A stretch of 64,000 bases of DNA, taken from NCBI GenBank assembly GCA_037355855.1, contig CM074760.1, positions 4,828,501 to 4,892,500 on the forward strand. Direction: 5' to 3'. A program made the position numbers and the translations under genes. Below are positions 1-36,486 of the stretch, piece by piece. The DNA comes from Pseudo-nitzschia pungens. Taxonomy: Eukaryota; Bacillariophyta; Bacillariophyceae; Bacillariales; Bacillariaceae. Position 1 is the stretch's first letter. Each line of letters opens with the position of its first letter. Under the pieces are notes generated by a model. That model was not told where the DNA came from. It saw nothing but the letters and a program-made list of their open reading frames with translations, and made no database searches.

Positions 1-2966
1 CTACAGTCTGAATTCCCTGAGTCATCTTCAACAATCCAGTACAGAGCTTGCTTTGCATGAAAATCATTGTACAATTCAAATACATTAGCAGCCACAGAAA
101 GCTTCTCCATCATGCAGACAGGAATGGTCAAGAACGACACACTTCCTTCCTCGCCACTGTTGCCTTCAAGGATCTTCCAATTATTTGGAACACTGCTGCT
201 GCCTTCAATGTAAATGGAATAGTCAAAATACCAGATGGTATTGGTTTTTGCAGTTTGATTCTTCACAGTCATTAGGCAATTTGCACGATCACTGACATGA
301 ACAGTCTCATTACCATTTGTCATGTTTTCATTGATGACAAGTGATAAAACAATTTTTCCCTCACACTCAAGGATAAGATAAGGATTGTCAACAGGATTGC
401 CTTCTTCATACCACGTTGGATCTTTTTCTGATTCTGTAACGTTACCAAGATGGATTGTGATTGGAACCATGCTTGGATCCCTGCAGTTGGGAAATCCATT
501 GCCAGTTATATTTGACATATTGAAAGCTTCTGTAATGGAACTAATCCCACAGACAGGATCAGAACATGTAGCAGAGCAGCAATCTCCACCATCGTATCCC
601 AACGCCAAGTTGTTCAGATCATTATTGCATTCTCCATTACCAATCAAGTAGCAATTTTTCTCCTCATCTTGTTTCCATTTCAAAACAGACACATCAATAG
701 GCGTGCCAGAAGCACTGTACCATCCCTCATCAAAAGCAGTCAATATGTCAAAGGTGTCCATCTTGGATGAAAATGCAAGCCCATCATCCTTTGCCTCTTT
801 CTGACATGCATCAGTATCATTCGAGGATAGTGTCCAACGGCGATCCTCAATGCAGTACTGAAACCTTGCTGTGTCATTGTCAGCTTCTACCAGAAAATAG
901 ACATCTCTCTTGTGTAGCTTCAAGCCTGATGACTGGCTTTGATTCATCTGTTTGTAACATCCACTGAAACCCTGGAGTTCTGTTGTCTGGAAGTTAACCC
1001 TGAAAATATAAGTACGCCATTTATTTGGGTCTGATTGGTTAAAAACAATTCCACCTATGAATGCAACAAAAATAGCACCCAGACATACCAAAGTGAAATG
1101 GAATCGAGTATGCTTCCGTCGTGACATGCAAGGTGGAAGTTGAAGTTTGGTGATTCTTTTTGCTTCGTGTTCAATTTCTGTACCATATTTCCCGCTCAAG
1201 GCCAACTGAAAGGCCGCATTATCCAAGCTACTTATGAAATTCTTTCCAAGAAGGCAAATGAAAGAAAGTTAATGAAGAGCAAGTGTCCAGGAAATGGAGA
1301 ACAGAGGAAAGTAGTGTGAGACAACATCTGTAATCTGATTGCAATCTGGTGTCAATTGGAAACGTAATATGGCTCTCACCACTGCAGAGAAGTTTAGGAC
1401 AATCTCAACTGCAGTTTCCGATGTTACAATTAGTAGAAAAGCTGCAAGCGTTGCCAACAAACCTTGAAGAAAACGAAGCATGCAAGAAAATACCATGCAT
1501 CCAACTTTGTCACCATGGTTGGTTTTGGAGAAATTGGGGAATTTCTCAATAGCAGTAGTAATGTCCAGCATAGATGCATCTGCAAACAAGACATAGGCCG
1601 AAATAGCTATGAACTGTGTTGCTTGTACGACTGGATCTGCATTGGCGGCAACAATTCTCGCAAGCACATCATCATCTTCTGGATTGTCATCATGCTTTGT
1701 ACCCCAGTCTGGGTGAAGAACACTTAGTAACATCATACTAACAAGTAACACTTGAAAGATGGAAACCAATATTCCCATACCAAAGAAAAGGGGTTGATCG
1801 AGGGGCCCATGGAGGGACAAGAAAGAATAGGAGTCTTTTGGATACAATGGATGTGGATTGTCCTCAACATAAAAAAATTCACTGTCTCTATCTCCTGCTT
1901 TTGTCTTTCCTTCAATTTGAATGTCCTTGTGGAATTCATCGTCGAACGCATGTGCCCCAATAATGGTATTGATAGAGTCCCTGACAATATTTTTTGGAGC
2001 GCCACTCTTCATGTCATCTTTCAATAATTCCAATGAATTCTCATGCGAACATGAGTCCACCTTCTTTGCCTCGGAAGAGCACTGCAAAGAGGATCCCAAG
2101 GAGAGTGATTTGCTGCTCTGAGAAGAGGAGTCAGAAGACTGGAAAAAAGATCCTAAGGAGAGTCTGTTGCTGCCTCCACCTTGTCCCTTGGCTGTGTGTG
2201 CTGATCCGCCTTTGAAAACATTTGGAAGAGAAAACGCCTTCACTTTGCTCCCCATTGAATCCACCGAGCTGTTGCTATTTTTTCCATTGATGCTGGTCAA
2301 CGACTTCTCTGTGGTGCTTTTTTGGTCAAACCACTGCTCTGAGTCGCCCATGGACAATTCCAGCGAATTTCCACCCGTCTGTGTCTCAGTATTCTTGTGA
2401 TGCTGATCATCTCGTCTCTTGACACTGTCTTGGGCTTCAAAATCTTTCTGCACTGCTTCTGTCTCTTGTAAATGTCCGTCGCCGAGTACTCCAGAGTCTT
2501 TATTGTCGCCGAGCAATCCATAGTCTTTATTGTCGCCGAGCAATCCAGGGTCTTTATTGTCGCCGAGAAATCCAGAGTCTTTATTGTCGCCGAGAAATTC
2601 AGAGTCTTTCTTGTCGCCAAGCAATCCAGAGTCTTTATTGTCGCCGAGTAATCCAGAGTCTTTCTTGTCGCCGAGCAATCCAGAGTCTTCGTTGTTGCCA
2701 AGCAATCCAGATTCTTTCTTGTCGCCGAGCAATCCAGAGTCTTTCTTGTCGTCAAGCAATCCAGGGTCCTTCTTGTCGCCGAGCAATCCAGAGTCTTTCT
2801 TGTCGCCGAGCAATCCAGAGTCTTTCTCTCTGTCATCAACGCCTGCCTGTGGCGCTGAACCGTCAATCAGACCTGATACTTGCATGGAGTCTGTGTCACT
2901 TGCTTGTCCTGTTCTGGTCGTCGTAGTAGTACCGTACGAGATTGCTTTTTTCCCGTTATGTGACAT
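1..2966 (-). CDS. Multi-pass membrane protein with Lin12/Notch repeat, two exons, 3' end outside window
   Basis: Two exons (2966 to 1380 and 1241 to beyond 1) are read in one frame on the minus strand. I place the start at the ATG at 2966, because the open frame upstream lies in repetitive DNA. The N-terminal half is low complexity and holds 13 copies of a 9-residue repeat (consensus DSGLLGDKK), then a Ser-rich stretch. Next come hydrophobic segments (for example FGMGILVSIFQVLLVSMML and the stretch around MLRFLQGLLATLAAFLLIV), the conserved-looking motif NFISSLDNAAFQLALSGKYG, and another membrane helix near 1040-1090. The lumenal or extracellular part has a Cys-rich Lin12/Notch repeat at about 550-660 (CYLIGNGECNN, GYDGGDCC). 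Diatom genomes carry proteins of this layout; their function is unknown to me. It is probably a surface or endomembrane protein. The frame stays open to base 3. Confidence 0.75.
1242..1379 (-). other. Intron of the Lin12/Notch-repeat membrane protein gene
   Basis: Minus-strand donor GTGAGA (1379-1374) and acceptor GGAAAG ending at 1242, with a pyrimidine-rich tract just before it. Removing these 138 bases joins LNFSAV to NFISSLDNAAF in phase. It also removes an in-frame TAA at 1269-1271. Because 138 is a multiple of three, the exon otherwise reads into the intron as apparent coding sequence. The join fits what I remember of related diatom proteins. Confidence 0.75.
2472..2822 (-). repeat. 27-bp coding minisatellite, 13 units
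   Basis: Thirteen in-frame 27-bp units encode DSGLLGDKK and variants such as DPGLLDDKK, ESGLLGNNE and DSGVLGDGH inside the membrane protein gene. Because the unit is a multiple of three, gains and losses keep the frame. The array is also open in other frames, which produces spurious ORFs on both strands. Confidence 0.9.
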
Positions 2967-3159
2967 TCTTGTCGTACCCCCTGCCGCTATTGCTAGAAAG
3001 TATCTATTGTGACGTTTTTGTTGCACTCCCAAAAACGACTCCCTTGGTTGGTTCTGCCTGCCGTGCTGTGGAACGCGGGACGTGCTTCTCGCTGTTTTTT
3101 GGTGACCTTCTTGTAACGCAAAATTTCTGTACGTGGTTGGAAAGCCTGTTAAAATGTAG

Positions 3160-3859
3160 CTGGTTGGAAAGCCTGTTAAAATGTAGCTGAAACTGGTATC
3201 AGCGTTCGTGTGGTGTGGATAAAATCCGAGGAGGTTGTATCCGGGCAAAGGAACAGGGATATATTTGCCTGGTGGATACAAGGGTGAATGCAGGTGTATT
3301 CGGAGAATACAGGTCTATCAGTGGGAGGTTATATGTTGCTGCGTCGTTCGAAAACACCGTTGTTTGCTCAAAACTCCGTTGTTGTTTGAAATGCCGTTGT
3401 TGCTCAAAACGCCGTTGTTGTTTCGAAACGCCGGTGTTGCTCAAAACGTTGTTGTTCGAACCGCCGTTGTTGTTTGTGGGAAGCGCTACCGTTGTATGCT
3501 CCGTTGTTGAAACAGCGTCGTGTTTAGAACAGCACGATTGTAGTGTTTGTTGTGGTTAGCAGCAATATCGTGACGGGAGAAATGGGTGCAGCAGCAGTAG
3601 AATTTTGAAAAATTCTTTCTCCGTCAATTCTTGGAGTTTGGAGATGCCGTTTGTACCGTTGTATTCGCAATAACAAGGAGAACACTAATACCTGGAACGG
3701 CCTTGCAACAGGGATCTTGGTGTTCCAGTGTAGGATTAAAACTGTAAGCAGCGTCGATTCCGTCTTTCGTCGTCGTCGTCGTTGTTGTTCCTTGTTATTT
3801 TCGGGTTGCTTGTAGATCTCCAGCTTTGCAAGCTTAAAATAAGCTTGCGACTGTTAATC
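3160..3859. repeat. Dispersed leader/LTR-type repeat block
   Basis: No gene is seen. Bases 3200-3860 resemble 17175-17795 in the same orientation and 18367-18990 inverted. The shared block contains a stretch reading cctggtggatacaa, iterations of a GCCGTTGTTGTTCGAAA-like motif and a final segment ending gcttgcgactgttaatct. In the minus orientation the same block precedes a Copia gag start at about 16790, so it is probably retrotransposon LTR or leader DNA. Two short copies of the motif gttaaaatgtagctg lie at 3150-3190. The block sits directly upstream of the membrane protein gene and may supply or disrupt its promoter. Confidence 0.6.
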
Positions 3860-31858: not shown

Positions 31859-31860
31859 TA

Positions 31861-31984
31861 CTACGGAATTCCTATCAGCTGATCCCCCCACCTTTTTAAT
31901 CAGATTAAAAAGCTTTTTTACGTCGATTCGACGCAAACCCTCAAAAACTCTGTAGTACTCAATTTCTACGTAATTTAGTGTAGG
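31861..31984 (+). repeat. Left 124-bp terminal inverted repeat of the Tc1-type element
   Basis: Starts CTACGGAATTCC after TA and ends gtgtagg. It contains an inner short palindrome tcgattcga. Confidence 0.93.
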
Positions 31985-32250
31985 ATCAATCGTGCTCTAT
32001 TGTGCTCTGTTTTGACACCCGCTTCCGAAAACTGATTTCGTCATTCTTTTCCTTCGCAGCTCCTGCTTTCACCCCGGACCATGGTGATTGCCCAAATCCT
32101 GTTGCAACAGCTCCTTTGAACCCATTTTTCTTGTCCAGAGCAACCCTTGCATCGAGAGTGCATCTGAGCCTTTTTTCTGCTCAAAAATTGACCGCGGAAA
32201 GCAAAAATACCCCCTCCTTCTTTTTCGGCCGACAATCCGACAATTCCACC

Positions 32251-33510
32251 ATGGCCAACGTCAATCAGAATTCCACTGCTGGGACGAGTCTCAAGCAAGA
32301 GATCGAGCGCCAACTGAACCACAGAACTCAAGTGGATGAAAAACCCATGCAAATTGCAGTGAAAAAGCTTGCAAATAACAAGAAATTCTTGGGGACGAAA
32401 AGTGAGAAATTGGCGCACATCAAGAAGATTGGCGATGAGATGATAATTGGATTCTTGAGACAGAAGAAAAGAAGGAGAGCAGCCGATGACATCAAACTAC
32501 TCACTAAACTACCACTTCTGCACAGAGCCAAGACGTCAAAAGAAGACGTGGCATTGGTTGTTTTCTACGTTGCAGAAATTCTATACTCGTGCGACATCAG
32601 GGTAGGAGGGAACAAAGAAATTGGTGATTGCGTCAACCCCTTCAGAGACGCTTATGCTGCATTAATGAATGAGACCAGGCAGCAAATCGAAGCGAACAAC
32701 AAGAATTACCTTATCAAGCAGTCTCCAGAAGAAGTCAGTCGGCTCTTCTTGGAAGGGGGGGGGAAACTACCAGACGATCCTGCACTTCGGACGTGCCCAT
32801 TTTGCTCGCATTCCTACGTCGATGAACCGGCTACCAATGCGGCTGTAATGGATAGAAATAGAGCGTTGGCAGCTGATTTCGACGCAAAAATGAGGGAATA
32901 CAATAGCAACAATGGGCATTATACTAATGCGCTTGGAGAGAGGAGCAATCGAACTCCGCCAAAGCCACAATACAAGCATGAAGTCCTCCAATGCCATTGC
33001 CATCAGATCACTTGCGTCAGCGCTGCTGGAAATGGATCTTGTAGGGATTGCAACGCGAATGGTGCAAAACTGGATAGCAACAACAATTGCAAGTGCCCGG
33101 TCTGTTCTTGTACTTGCAATTTCGCTTACAAAAAAAATTCTGTAGACATGATTTCCACCAACAAGGGAGCAGAGAAGATTGCTGACAAGGAAAACATCGA
33201 CACTGGCAATGCCGCTGCTGGAAAAGCGATTGGATCGATCTTTGCTGCGTCTGCAGTGGAAGCGCACGCTGCTCATGCTGCAGTTATCCATGCACGAAAT
33301 GGAAAAACTGACGATAGTGATGCCATTTGTATGGAAAATCTGTATTTCCAGGGAGCAAGCCGAAGATTGATGGAGGATCCTTCTATCAACCTGTCATCTC
33401 TGCGGGATTTTGCTGGGACTGCCGTCAATATTGCCCTCCCTGGCGGTTCTGTTTTCGATACGCGTCTCCTTGGCAAAGAGAACGGAGGATTCCGGGCAAG
33501 AAACAATTGA
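32251..33510 (+). CDS. Accessory protein A of the Tc1-type element, Cys-cluster protein
   Basis: 419 aa from the ATG at 32251 (context ccaccATGG). The frame is open upstream to 32002, but that part lies in the subterminal inverted repeat. I do not recognise the family. The first third is Lys-rich and helical (KLAHIKKIGDEMI, RQKKRRRAADDIKLL). The middle holds CPFCSHSYV, then a dense Cys/His region (CHCHQITC, CRDCNANG, CKCPVCSCTCNF) that could bind two or more zinc ions. The C-terminal part contains ENLYFQG at 33334-33354, the exact consensus of a potyviral protease site. The frame ends at TGA (33508) and continues open into protein B. A role in DNA binding or transposition control is a guess. 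Confidence 0.7.
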   Translation: MANVNQNSTAGTSLKQEIERQLNHRTQVDEKPMQIAVKKLANNKKFLGTKSEKLAHIKKIGDEMIIGFLRQKKRRRAADDIKLLTKLPLLHRAKTSKEDVALVVFYVAEILYSCDIRVGGNKEIGDCVNPFRDAYAALMNETRQQIEANNKNYLIKQSPEEVSRLFLEGGGKLPDDPALRTCPFCSHSYVDEPATNAAVMDRNRALAADFDAKMREYNSNNGHYTNALGERSNRTPPKPQYKHEVLQCHCHQITCVSAAGNGSCRDCNANGAKLDSNNNCKCPVCSCTCNFAYKKNSVDMISTNKGAEKIADKENIDTGNAAAGKAIGSIFAASAVEAHAAHAAVIHARNGKTDDSDAICMENLYFQGASRRLMEDPSINLSSLRDFAGTAVNIALPGGSVFDTRLLGKENGGFRARNN

Positions 33511-34227
33511 CTTGCTGAGAAACCTGCTGTAGCTGCATCAAATGGACATGGTTTTCTTGGGATGGGGCCTCCAGCGCCAAGAAATGCCACTTCGGCTGCA
33601 ACAATCAGTCCGATCCCGGCGTCGACAGCTGTCGTGGCAACTCCACCGGCAGCAACGCTCCGTACCCTTGGTCCGTTCGATCCATCCAGCGAGATGAAAA
33701 AGCCACCCCCCAAGAAATCGCAGCATAAAATTCCGGTCTCTGCAACCATGAAGACTTTTCTTTCTGTCAATGCTGCAGTGAATGGAACCGTAAAGATGCC
33801 ATCTGCAGTGTCGCAAGCAGAGGTGGACCAGCTTGTGACAGCAAAAGAGCGAGGGGAAGTGATTGATTTGGATGATGACGATTCTGTTGTCTCTTTTCTT
33901 TCTTTTGATAAAAAGCCGTCCAAAAAGAAGAAGCCTGCTGTCAACACGCCACGTTCTTCTTTTGTTAGGCGAACCCGGATCCGGTTGATTGGTCGCGCCA
34001 CTGAACCAGTGATGAACGTTGATACTGATATCCCCTCTTCTCCAGAATCGACTATTGTACAGGATGCCATCCATTTCTGTGAGCTTCCAATCGAAAGAGT
34101 GAAGGACATTGCCGAATGTGTCTTGGACTCGGACAAGAATGCGAGTCCTGATCAACTCAAGCGCGCTGTTGATCAGTTCTTTCCCTTCCCTTCCACATTG
34201 AAGAAGAAGGCAAAGAAGAACAAGTAG
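33511..34227 (+). CDS. Accessory protein B of the Tc1-type element (same frame as A, after a TGA)
   Basis: The frame is open from the codon after the TGA at 33508; the first ATG is 33562, giving 221 aa. I do not recognise it. It is Ala/Pro-rich at the start, with basic clusters (MKKPPPKKSQHK, KKPSKKKKP), an acidic patch (VIDLDDDDSVVSFLSFD) and a helical C terminus ending KKKAKKNK. The acidic patch VIDLDDDD followed by Val/Ser is reminiscent of SUMO-interacting motifs. Either this is the C-terminal half of A reached by read-through, or A carries a nonsense mutation. It converges with the transposase gene. Confidence 0.6.
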   Translation, partial: LAEKPAVAASNGHGFLGMGPPAPRNATSAATISPIPASTAVVATPPAATLRTLGPFDPSSEMKKPPPKKSQHKIPVSATMKTFLSVNAAVNGTVKMPSAVSQAEVDQLVTAKERGEVIDLDDDDSVVSFLSFDKKPSKKKKPAVNTPRSSFVRRTRIRLIGRATEPVMNVDTDIPSSPESTIVQDAIHFCELPIERVKDIAECVLDSDKNASPDQLKRAVDQFFPFPSTLKKKAKKNK

Positions 34228-34229
34228 AT

Positions 34230-35008
34230 TGTCGAGTCTCCACCATTGTCGATCGATTGTCGAGTCTCCACCATTGTCGATTGTCGAGTCTCCACCCGTC
34301 CCCACCCTCTGTATATTGTTGTGTCTCCACCAGTCGATTGTCGCGTCTCCACCATTGTCGATTGTCGCGTCTCCGGCTCCGGCTCCGGCTCTGGCTCCAC
34401 CATTGTCGATTGTCGATTTTGGTTGTATTTCTTAGTGGTAGTTTATTGGATTTTGCTTTTGCAATTTCCAAAAATAGAAATAATGAATTAGTGTTTGCTC
34501 CAGTTTGCTCCAGTTTATTTGTAATAGGTTTTCGATTGTACCCAATAGCGCCGGCTGTCGATCACTCCCACGTCTTAAGTATCTAACACTTGTGGGAATC
34601 GATTATATCCATCTCCATTGGTGGATATCGAACATAGGTACAATAGAAAACCTTGGACGTCCGGATGGTGGGATTGAAGTCGACCGGCGCCGCAAAGTAT
34701 AGAAGAACTCCTGGGATTGAAGTCTGACATGCTTGTAATCTGATAGGTTAGAGTTGTCTTTAGGTATTATTTATTTACAGGGGTGGATATCGAACATATG
34801 TTACATCCGAAAAGCGCTCATAGCGCTCAGCAACTCTAATTCATTAATTCTATTTTTGCAACTTGCAAAAGCAAAATCCACTAAACAACCAAATCGAAAT
34901 CGACAATGGTGGTGGAGACGCGACAACCGACAATGGTGGAGACGCGGCAATCGATCGACAATGGTGGGAACTCGACAATCGTCCGGTGGAGACTCGACAA
35001 TACACCAC
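34230..35008. repeat. Interrupted palindrome between the convergent genes of the Tc1-type element
   Basis: The left arm (34230-34500) has iterated gattgtcgagtctccaccattgtc-type steps and then ttttgcttttgcaattt. It is mirrored at 34830-35005 (gcaacttgcaaaagcaaaatcc, then cgacaatggtggagac steps). The loop of some 330 bp is unique apart from two copies of gtggatatcgaacata at about 34620 and 34784. No gene is seen. The position fits shared 3' untranslated or terminator sequence. Confidence 0.75.
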
Positions 35009-36106
35009 TCAGTTCGTATATCCGACGTTCGCAAAATAGTTTACAAACTCGGGGATTCCCCGTATAATTGCATACAGCTGCTGGCTCAGGTCAGCCTGGT
35101 TGGAGATATTGTACATCTTGTAGCTCAGCGCCATTTCGATGGTATTGAACACGTACTCAATGGGTCCATCCACTGGATAATAAGGGGCACGAAACACGAA
35201 TCGGTGCCCCGCCGCTAGAATTGCACCTAGCGTCAGTGGATTGTGGTGAGCCAACAAATTATCCATGATAAAACACTTTCTATTGCCATCCACACCCGGT
35301 GGCAGCGATTCCAGGATACTCTCAATGAAAGCAGCAAAGGAGATAGCGTCGGTCCCTGTGGTATCAAATCTAACCCAGCGGCGTCCCTTGGGATCCCCAC
35401 TGATTGCCATCTTGAGTGTATGATTTACACCATGCCCATAGTTCCCTCGCTGGCGCACTCGCCCGCAAATTGACGCTTTGCCCATTCTCCTGTTTGCGTT
35501 CTCCAGCTTGATTCCTGCTTCATCCACATCAATCATATCGTCCCTACGAATGTCCGCAATTCCGTGTGGATAATTCATGGTCCAGTATCGGAATCTCTTG
35601 TATCGATTTCGAAAAGTGAAGGCTTGATTGGCTGTTGTAGACCCCTTCTTCCTGTTGATTCCAATCGAATTCTCTGCTTCTGTAATATCCTTCAGGGAAT
35701 AGACGCGAGGGACAGGTAAGTAGCTGCTGTAGGATCTCCAGAGGAACGCGATACACTCGTATCGGGTTGCCTTTGGATAGATCTTTCTGTATACAGCAAG
35801 CAAGAACATTGGATATCCGTGGATCCCCTCCTTCATCTTGTTACCAGTGTGCCTCATTCTAACGTTTCTTCCCAACTCTCTGATTCGTCTGTTGTAGCGT
35901 TTGGCAGTTGACGAGTGTGGAAGAGTCTCGATATCATTGATATTCTTTCCAATTTCCTCGTATCTCACGACCGTGTGTCTCCTCATGTCTTCAGAATACC
36001 CATTCCCTCCATTTCTAGGGATAGGAATGTCAGTATTAGTGGCATATCTAGGCGTTTGCAGAGCAGGACGGACTGTATTGCTCTTCAGGGGATTGCCATT
36101 CACCAT
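35009..36106 (-). CDS. IS630/Tc1/mariner-type DD34E transposase
   Basis: 365 aa from the first ATG (36106). The N-terminal half should hold helix-turn-helix DNA-binding domains (RYNRRIRELGRNVRMRHTGN, then PRVYSLKDITEAENSIG). The catalytic triad is visible: Asp195 in DVDEAG, Asp282 in FIMDNLLAHHNP, Glu317 in YYPVDGPIEYVF, with 34 residues between the second Asp and the Glu. These motifs correspond to the VDE, LDNxxxH and PYSPDLNPIE motifs of the family. It cuts at the element ends and inserts at TA, matching the TA duplication seen. The frame is intact and ends with TGA. Confidence 0.92.
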   Translation of the reverse strand: MVNGNPLKSNTVRPALQTPRYATNTDIPIPRNGGNGYSEDMRRHTVVRYEEIGKNINDIETLPHSSTAKRYNRRIRELGRNVRMRHTGNKMKEGIHGYPMFLLAVYRKIYPKATRYECIAFLWRSYSSYLPVPRVYSLKDITEAENSIGINRKKGSTTANQAFTFRNRYKRFRYWTMNYPHGIADIRRDDMIDVDEAGIKLENANRRMGKASICGRVRQRGNYGHGVNHTLKMAISGDPKGRRWVRFDTTGTDAISFAAFIESILESLPPGVDGNRKCFIMDNLLAHHNPLTLGAILAAGHRFVFRAPYYPVDGPIEYVFNTIEMALSYKMYNISNQADLSQQLYAIIRGIPEFVNYFANVGYTN

Positions 36107-36360
36107 GGTGGAATCGTCGGATCGTCGGATTGTCGAATTCCCGTCGTTTTCGGTGAAATCAGAAGCAGTTCGAAAAATCACTTTCCGAGGTCAATTTCCC
36201 AGCAGAAAAAAGGCTCAGATGCACTCTCGATGCAAGGATTGCTCTGGACAAGAAAAATGGGTTCAAAGGAGCTGATGCAACAGGATTTGGGCAACCACCA
36301 TGGTCCCGGTCGAAATGAGAAGGAGTGGTGTGATGGTGTCAAAAAAGAAGAAGACTAGAG

Positions 36361-36484
36361 CCTACACTAAATTACGTAGAAATTGAGTACTACAGAGTTT
36401 TTGAGGGTTTGCGTCGAATCGACGTAAAAAAGCTTTTTAATCTGATTAAAAAGGTGGGGGGATCAGCTGATAGGAATTCCGTAG
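36361..36484 (-). repeat. Right 124-bp terminal inverted repeat of the Tc1-type element
   Basis: Reverse complement of 31861-31984; TA follows at 36485. Confidence 0.93.
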
Positions 36485-36486
36485 TA

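What the first reader, a model, noticed from the sequence alone, without database searches (positions are those of the whole stretch)
31861..36484. Tc1/mariner-type transposon with two unfamiliar accessory ORFs and 124-bp TIRs
Most elements of this superfamily carry only a transposase of about 350 aa. This one has perfect 124-bp TIRs, TA duplication, an intact DD34E transposase and, convergent with it, about 650 codons of accessory coding sequence (a protein with a dense Cys/His cluster, and a basic/acidic protein). The accessory sequence lies wholly inside the TIRs and looks maintained. It could form a multi-component transposition system in stramenopiles.
Basis: partly seen in the sequence, partly recalled or inferred. 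Interest (0 to 1): 0.75.

Follow-up and report, generated by a model that had tools for sequence, protein, structure and literature searches.

The report
Two-gene Tc1/mariner transposon in a diatom
A jumping gene in a diatom, of a kind that usually carries one gene, carries a second conserved gene for a cysteine-rich protein that stays paired with the jumping enzyme in three diverged families, so it is probably part of how the element moves or escapes control.

Summary
The element is real: 4,624 bp, perfect 124-bp TIRs, flanking TA, Mos1-like DD34E transposase. Correction: the "two accessory ORFs" are one frame cut by a TGA at 33508-33510; nine other copies carry one open ORF of 639-653 aa. 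The host is very probably a diatom. In its genome 58 of 70 longer transposase hits have the accessory gene converging within 6 kb (55 within 3 kb; 0.45 expected by chance). The pair occurs in three lineages whose accessory proteins are 15-20% identical (A against B/C) yet share 11 Cys and 1 His. Both genes are constrained (median dN/dS 0.22 and 0.09). Three of five Pseudo-nitzschia multiseries accessory models sit beside transposase models by number. Also found: mirrored untranslated regions, ATTGTCG arrays after both stops, and a central segment in either orientation. Best reading: a two-component Tc1/mariner system; that the accessory binds zinc and nucleic acid is inference. Multi-gene Tc1/mariner elements are known in ciliates; my ten paper searches listed none in diatoms. 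New variant of a known kind.

The parts
31859..31860 (.). TA flank, left (target site duplication)
31861..31984 (+). left TIR, 124 bp, begins CTACGGAATTCC
   Evidence: perfect to the right TIR for 124 bp; 40 scored of 175 candidate TIR matches in own genome
31985..32250 (+). inner flank / 5' untranslated region of the accessory gene; 32060-32235 is an inverted copy (84%) of 36147-36322, the flank of the transposase gene
   Evidence: other copies
32230..32244 (+). two CGACAAT motifs just upstream of the accessory ATG
32251..33510 (+). accessory gene, first 419 codons, ending in an in-frame TGA in this copy
32794..33117 (+). Cys/His cluster (invariant C-P-x-C-x-H, then C-x-C-x4-C ... C-x2-C ... 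C-x2-C-x-C-x-C)
   Evidence: place read
33511..34227 (+). rest of the accessory gene, same frame (238 codons before its stop); one of two C-terminal tail types among copies
34228..34416 (+). array of ten ATTGTCG motifs directly after the accessory stop (24-bp tandem units)
34496..34831 (.). central non-coding segment between the inverted 3' arms; found in either orientation in other copies and shared between lineages
34901..35001 (-). array of five CGACAAT (+) = ATTGTCG in the transposase sense, directly after the transposase stop
35009..36106 (-). transposase gene, 365 aa, DD34E, Mos1-like fold; frame also open from an upstream GTG at 36181
36107..36360 (-). inner flank / 5' untranslated region of the transposase gene, inverted copy of the accessory one; one CGACAAT motif (transposase sense) at 36129-36135
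36361..36484 (-). right TIR, 124 bp
36485..36486 (.). TA flank, right (target site duplication)

Best explanation
This is one copy of a two-gene DNA transposon of the IS630-Tc1-mariner superfamily in a diatom. Shown: a mariner-fold DD34E transposase and one convergent accessory gene sit between TIRs with mirrored untranslated regions, insert at TA, and have diverged together through three lineages under purifying selection. Inferred: both genes are expressed together from the mirrored inner flanks; the transposase cuts and pastes at TA/CTACG ends; the accessory protein binds zinc with its Cys/His cluster and binds the element's own DNA or RNA, the ATTGTCG arrays being the leading candidate target, and so helps transposition (end recognition, synapsis or expression). 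The window copy has a broken accessory gene but keeps both ends and an open transposase.
For: Linkage and orientation: 58 of 70 transposase hits convergent with an accessory hit within 6 kb, 55 of them within 3 kb, against 0.45 expected by chance within 3 kb. Same plan in three lineages: lineage A, and four B/C loci read in full (chosen because both hits were there). 11 Cys + 1 His among 34 invariant columns although lineage A is 15-20% identical to B/C. dN/dS medians 0.22 (accessory, 54 of 55 pairs) and 0.09 (transposase, 77 of 78 pairs) in lineage A. Accessory and transposase distances correlate over 9 linked pairs, Mantel r=0.88, p=0.0004. P. multiseries models 15854/15855, 19608/19607 and 21206/21208 pair a transposase with an accessory by number. 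Fold: Mos1 paired-end complex first in Foldseek, E=2.3e-10. Eight complete elements with TA on both sides. ATTGTCG arrays after both stop codons in 11 of 11 complete elements of three lineages; 10-18 motifs per element against shuffle means of 0.55-0.72.
Against: 12 of 70 transposase hits lack a partner within 6 kb (two have a convergent one at 10.4 and 13.3 kb); one (L066) is a short transposase-only deletion derivative. No fold or family for the accessory: model mean pLDDT 41, no convincing Pfam, NCBIfam or PDB match. Outside this genome accessory homologues were found only in P. multiseries (5 models; only the 7,999 best-sharing candidates scored); two of the five have no transposase neighbour by number, and none of the five models contains the second part of the Cys cluster, so that adding them leaves no invariant Cys - the models look fragmentary, which is my inference. 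Transposase relatives are listed widely and I could not see whether they have the gene. Nothing shows zinc binding, motif binding, co-expression or activity. Exchange between copies can inflate conservation, and the dN/dS pairs are not independent.
Confidence: 0.6

Rival explanations
1. The accessory is not a transposition factor but an element-encoded regulator or anti-silencing protein: it binds the repeated ATTGTCG arrays in the untranslated regions of both genes and keeps the element expressed, as VANC proteins do for Arabidopsis VANDAL elements through tandem-repeat motifs.
For: Arrays right after both stops in 11 of 11 elements of three lineages, and motifs before the accessory ATG in 10 of 11; 91 exact 24-bp units in the genome against 0 for the reversed control; the accessory evolves faster than the transposase and has two C-terminal tail types that are exchanged among copies. 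VANC binds a short motif that accumulates by tandem repeats, with conserved and variable protein parts and a more conserved transposase (PMC5735166, passages seen).
Against: No sequence relation to VANC was tested. Motifs before the transposase ATG are in 7 of 8 lineage-A elements but in 0 of 3 B/C elements. The arrays could equally be 3'-end or RNA-stability signals, and tandem duplication makes copies non-independent. No methylation or binding data.
Confidence: 0.18
2. The accessory is a passenger or captured host gene carried by a successful transposase, conserved for host reasons or only by hitch-hiking.
For: A transposase-only derivative exists (L066); transposase relatives of about 40-45% identity are listed from other diatoms and metagenomes without known partner; nine unpaired accessory places were not examined for TIRs.
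Against: 57 of 71 longer accessory hits converge with a transposase within 6 kb; dN/dS about 0.2 between element copies with dS mostly 0.19-1.17; the same pairing in three diverged lineages.
Confidence: 0.07
3. The pairing is kept by recombination among co-resident transposons: this family exchanges modules, so shared non-coding modules rather than joint function may hold the genes together.
For: Near-identical elements L011 and L013 differ mainly in the accessory tail and its 3' region; the centre is 82-93% identical over 230-244 bp between the window and three B/C elements although protein dS is saturated; 16 of 40 scored centre copies lie away from any listed gene hit.
Against: Accessory N-part and transposase distances track each other over the 9 linked pairs (Mantel r=0.88), and all 21 paired lineage-A transposases are beside lineage-A accessories, all 37 paired B/C ones beside B or C accessories.
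Confidence: 0.1
4. Two independent accessory genes.
For: Two ORFs by the strict ORF list.
Against: Same frame; nine other copies are one open ORF.
Confidence: 0.02

Closest known systems
TBE elements of Oxytricha (Tc1/mariner, ciliates)
   Same: Tc1/mariner DDE transposase plus extra ORFs inside TIRs, one extra ORF with a zinc finger and less conserved than the transposase, one ORF in reverse orientation, a region of short tandem repeats between ORFs, dN/dS 0.1-0.3 overall (PMC4724952, passages)
   Different: TBE has three ORFs (42, 22, 57 kD), an ANT target site and telomeric repeat in the TIR (shown for TBE1), and a kinase domain in the 57-kD protein; here one accessory gene, TA targets, CTACG ends and mirrored untranslated regions. 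Sequence relation not tested.
Tec, Sardine, Thon, Anchois and Tennessee elements (ciliates)
   Same: Tc1/mariner elements with extra ORFs beside a DD34E/DD35E transposase, some with long TIRs (PMC7325037 and PMC3464196, passages)
   Different: Tec, Sardine and Thon carry a recombinase; the passages I saw mention no Cys-rich protein, but several of their ORFs are only called hypothetical. Not compared by sequence.
TcMar-2_Ec32 of Ectocarpus (brown alga, also a stramenopile)
   Same: 4.4-kb autonomous Mariner-Tc1 element involving a possible zinc-finger domain (EsV-1-7) (PMC12477816, passages)
   Different: There the domain is N-terminal in the transposase; here it is a separate convergent gene. 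Whether TcMar-2 has a second gene was not seen.
Harbinger and Kolobok elements with a second protein
   Same: Transposase plus a second gene, tail-to-tail in Ectocarpus Harbingers; KolX and others in Kolobok
   Different: Different transposase superfamilies; Kolobok uses TTAA targets
VANC proteins of Arabidopsis VANDAL elements
   Same: Element-encoded non-transposase protein, target motifs as tandem repeats in the element, variable protein parts (PMC5735166, passages)
   Different: VANDALs are Mutator-like (recalled); binding is shown there and only proposed here

Membership tests
IS630-Tc1-mariner superfamily | TA target site duplication | tested here: met
   TA on both sides of the 8 lineage-A elements with both ends found, window included; a ninth (L014) lacked one end; TA also at the ends of L070, L071, L072 (read)
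IS630-Tc1-mariner superfamily | DDE/D transposase with short D-E spacing | tested here: met
   DD34E in lineage A, DD38E in lineage B (counted); Pfam DDE_3 over cut-off for the window, L070 and L071 and under it for L072; NCBIfam IS630 E=4.6e-11 to 7.5e-8, far below that model's curated cut-off
IS630-Tc1-mariner superfamily | mariner-like fold | tested here: met
IS630-Tc1-mariner superfamily | terminal inverted repeats | tested here: met
   124 bp perfect; 221-305 bp at about 92% in L070, L071, L072, none found in L069
TBE/Tec-type multi-ORF ciliate elements | accessory proteins homologous to the 22-kD/57-kD or recombinase ORFs | not tested
   no ciliate accessory sequence was at hand; no Pfam kinase, recombinase or zinc-finger match
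TBE (ciliate) | ANT target site and telomeric repeat in the TIR, as given for TBE1 | tested here: not met
   TA target and CTACG ends; TBE1 values
Known zinc-finger families | match to a described profile or solved structure | tested here: inconclusive
   no convincing Pfam, NCBIfam or PDB sequence match; structure model too poor to compare
VANC-like anti-silencing protein | binding to tandem motifs and loss of DNA methylation | not testable with these tools
   arrays present; no binding or methylation data

The most novel reading that the evidence does not exclude
The Cys-rich accessory protein is a sequence-specific anti-silencing or self-regulation factor of diatom Tc1/mariner elements: it recognises the ATTGTCG arrays that follow both genes, and it co-evolves with them by swapping C-terminal tails and motif arrays among copies. 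This would be a system working like Arabidopsis VANC but arisen separately in an unrelated transposon superfamily and in stramenopiles.
Probability: 0.15. Interest if true: 0.85.

Novelty: new variant of a known kind. Interest (0 to 1): 0.6.

Why it matters
Most Tc1/mariner elements manage with a transposase alone. A diverged, still partly intact two-gene group in a diatom makes testable why some need a partner protein, offers a candidate for a diatom transposon tool, and ties a conserved accessory protein to a conserved motif array in the same element.

Tried and rejected
Accessory structure: AlphaFold2 on 19 sequences gave mean pLDDT 41.2, pTM 0.23; not used for a fold search. Viral contigs: no relative of either protein. 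Region search with the Cys cluster of lineage B: 29 candidates, none at E<=0.01. Rfam on 34200-35050: one chance-level match, 12.7 bits against a gathering score of 65. Weak profile hits of the accessory (SigX E=0.00096 in NCBIfam with 19 bits against a cut-off of 260, H-NS E=0.3, HTH_SB E=0.012, DUF7376 E=0.016) were judged chance. In the structure comparison of the transposase many retroviral integrases follow the mariner rows at lower Z; read as the shared RNase H-type fold only. Dropped: recoding of the TGA (other copies carry sense codons there). An independent origin of the centre as its own element was thought less likely, because three of four gene-free centre loci read still carry element ends or subterminal parts; the fourth (L074) shows the centre with only one further 41-bp match, so this is not settled.

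The whole-genome DDE_3 search gave 44 matches; by eye 43 lie at places listed or 32 and one is a 66-bp fragment. I do not use it as proof that no transposase-only family exists: the profile catches few lineage-B copies and scored 50 candidates.

Literature: ten searches ran (PMC open licences only; one search found 0 papers, which says little since papers print a slash; two searches listed 12 of 19 and 12 of 33). No listed title or start of abstract describes this accessory gene or a two-gene Tc1/mariner element in diatoms. Repbase and subscription papers were not searched. Six papers were opened and seen as passages only.

Full report

HOST. A six-frame search with the silicon-transporter profile gives 11 matches, best E=4e-232, so the host is very probably a diatom. 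Named relatives of the accessory come only from Pseudo-nitzschia multiseries (that the label Psemu1 stands for this species is recalled). I did not identify the host species.

LINKAGE. The accessory query and the transposase query hit the window's own lineage (A) and, weakly, two more lineages (B and C) whose own searches extend the list. Of 70 longer transposase hits that I picked from these tables, 58 have an accessory hit within 6 kb and all 58 are convergent; 55 lie within 3 kb, where 0.45 would be expected by chance. By lineage: 21 of 29 for A and 37 of 41 for B and C. Of 71 longer accessory hits, 57 have a convergent transposase within 6 kb, one B accessory has as its nearest neighbour an A transposase in tandem, and 13 have none within 6 kb. 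Of the 12 transposases without a partner, two have a convergent accessory at 10.4 and 13.3 kb, and L066 is a short transposase-only derivative with a TIR on one side and a 41-bp piece of TIR on the other. The four distant loci that I read, chosen because both hits were there, carry both genes open and convergent: accessory 617-633 aa, transposase 317-398 aa, with TIRs of 221-305 bp at about 92% in three of them and none found in L069.

CONSERVATION. Between lineage A and lineages B/C the accessory proteins are 15-20% identical and the transposases 29-33%. Of 34 gap-free invariant columns among 10 accessory proteins, 11 are Cys and 1 His, within 110 residues (C182 to C291). Nei-Gojobori dN/dS within lineage A: accessory median 0.224 (0.127-0.366, 54 of 55 pairs, those with dS between 0.05 and 1.5), Cys part 0.181 (53 pairs), C-terminal part 0.245 (44 pairs); transposase median 0.090 (0.027-0.163, 77 of 78 pairs). 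Only open frames were used (the window's accessory as its first 419 codons, L016 as a truncated one) and pairs are not independent, so the numbers show constraint but not its strength. Accessory (first 415 residues) and transposase distances of the 9 linked pairs correlate (Mantel r=0.88, p=0.0004).

ELSEWHERE. In 5.8 billion proteins the accessory profile found five P. multiseries gene models (only the 7,999 best candidates were scored). The transposase profile listed 100 relatives, among them P. multiseries models. Model numbers 15854/15855, 19608/19607 and 21206/21208 pair a transposase with an accessory, 3 of the 5 accessory models; that numbers follow position is my inference. Against this: none of the five models contains the second part of the Cys cluster, and with them in the alignment no Cys stays invariant; I take them for fragmentary models of decayed copies, which I could not check. 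Other transposase relatives (Thalassiosira, a Synedr- transcriptome, metagenomes; mostly about 40-45% identity) could not be seen in context, so how old and general the pairing is remains open. A 225-aa MMETSP transcript product, 90% identical over 48% of the query, suggests that a related transposase is transcribed somewhere.

(1) Mirror symmetry: the inner flanks of the two genes (32060-32235 and 36147-36322, 84%) and their 3' regions (34227-34296/34911-34980, 91%; 34427-34495/34832-34900, 86%) are inverted copies; eight elements show end-and-flank symmetry, at 74-83% over the longest match. (2) A motif: CGACAAT/ATTGTCG occurs 10-18 times per element in the 11 complete elements, against block-shuffle means of 0.55-0.72 and maxima of 3-4; tandem duplication makes these copies non-independent. 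In lineage A, 115 of 116 are outside coding sequence: 12 before the accessory ATG, 60 within 220 bp after its stop, 34 within 250 bp after the transposase stop, 9 before the transposase ATG, each class in one orientation. In B and C, 28 of 40 are before the accessory ATG (3) or after the two stops (10 and 15), 12 are in coding sequence and none is before the transposase ATG; L072 has none before the accessory ATG and L015 none before the transposase ATG. So the arrays after both stops are general (11 of 11) and the motifs before the starts are not. In the rest of the window there are 11 copies in 59.4 kb, five of them in one 27-bp tandem repeat. The 24-bp unit ATTGTCGNGTCTCCACCATTGTCG occurs 91 times in the genome and its reversed control 0 times. 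(3) A central 0.3-kb segment between the arms lies one way in the window, L012 and L018 and the other way in L010, L011, L013, L015, L019, L069, L070, L071 and L072. The window's copy is 82-93% identical to those of L070, L071 and L072 over 230-244 bp; including the arms, the best matches of 350 bp or more between lineage A and B/C elements are 73-88%, while the proteins are saturated at synonymous sites. Of 40 scored copies in the genome, 16 are not near a listed gene hit; of four such loci read, three still carry ends or subterminal parts of the elements and one (L074) shows the centre with one further 41-bp match. (4) Module exchange: L011 and L013 are 95-100% identical over every other part compared but 79% and 46% over the last two parts of the accessory gene and 74% in its 3' region; two tail types recur among copies.

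HOW IT MOST LIKELY WORKS. Shown: anatomy, TA insertion, linkage in this genome, constraint, co-divergence. Inferred: co-expression from the mirrored flanks; cut-and-paste at TA/CTACG ends, as established for Tc1/mariner transposases; zinc binding by the invariant cluster; a nucleic-acid-binding role for the accessory, with the ATTGTCG arrays as a candidate target. The exchange and inversion are best explained by recombination or gap repair between copies, helped by the inverted arms; that is also inference. I put the two-gene system itself at about 0.9, a direct role of the accessory in transposition at about 0.55 and a role in regulation or anti-silencing at about 0.2.

COMPARISON. Multi-ORF Tc1/mariner elements are known in ciliates: TBE with three ORFs including a zinc-finger protein, all under purifying selection (PMC4724952), Tec (PMC7325037), Sardine, Thon and Anchois (PMC3464196). 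In the brown alga Ectocarpus a possible zinc-finger domain is N-terminal in a 4.4-kb Mariner-Tc1 transposase (PMC12477816). VANC proteins of VANDAL elements bind motifs that form tandem repeats in their own elements (PMC5735166). All were seen as passages only. The present element is therefore a new variant of a known kind: same superfamily and same general idea as TBE, with a protein matching no library family I searched, another layout, and a conserved motif system.

Noticed in passing
window 34496-34831; L010, L011, L012, L013, L015, L018, L019, L069-L072: Central non-coding segment found in both orientations relative to the genes and shared between lineages whose proteins are saturated at synonymous sites.
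   Followed up: partly
C9:2417887-2422500 (L011/L041) and C2:6943298-6947930 (L013/L040): Two nearly identical elements differ mainly in the accessory gene's C-terminal part and its 3' region: a module swap.
   Followed up: partly
G000 C1:5531450/5532206, C1:5688610/5689366, C1:8649501/8650091, C3:3677630/3678400: Inverted pairs of the 24-bp motif about 0.6-0.8 kb apart at places with no listed accessory or transposase hit: gene-free derivatives or a further lineage. Letters could not be fetched for the two places asked for.
   Followed up: no
window 2478-2827: 27-bp tandem repeat, 13 copies, inside a 670-aa minus-strand ORF (1269-3281) coding for repeats such as KDSGLLGDK; it contains five ATTGTCG by its own repeat unit.
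   Followed up: partly
G000 C3:7803825-7808126: One 1,696-aa open frame with four silicon-transporter matches in a row: a multi-repeat silicon transporter.
   Followed up: no
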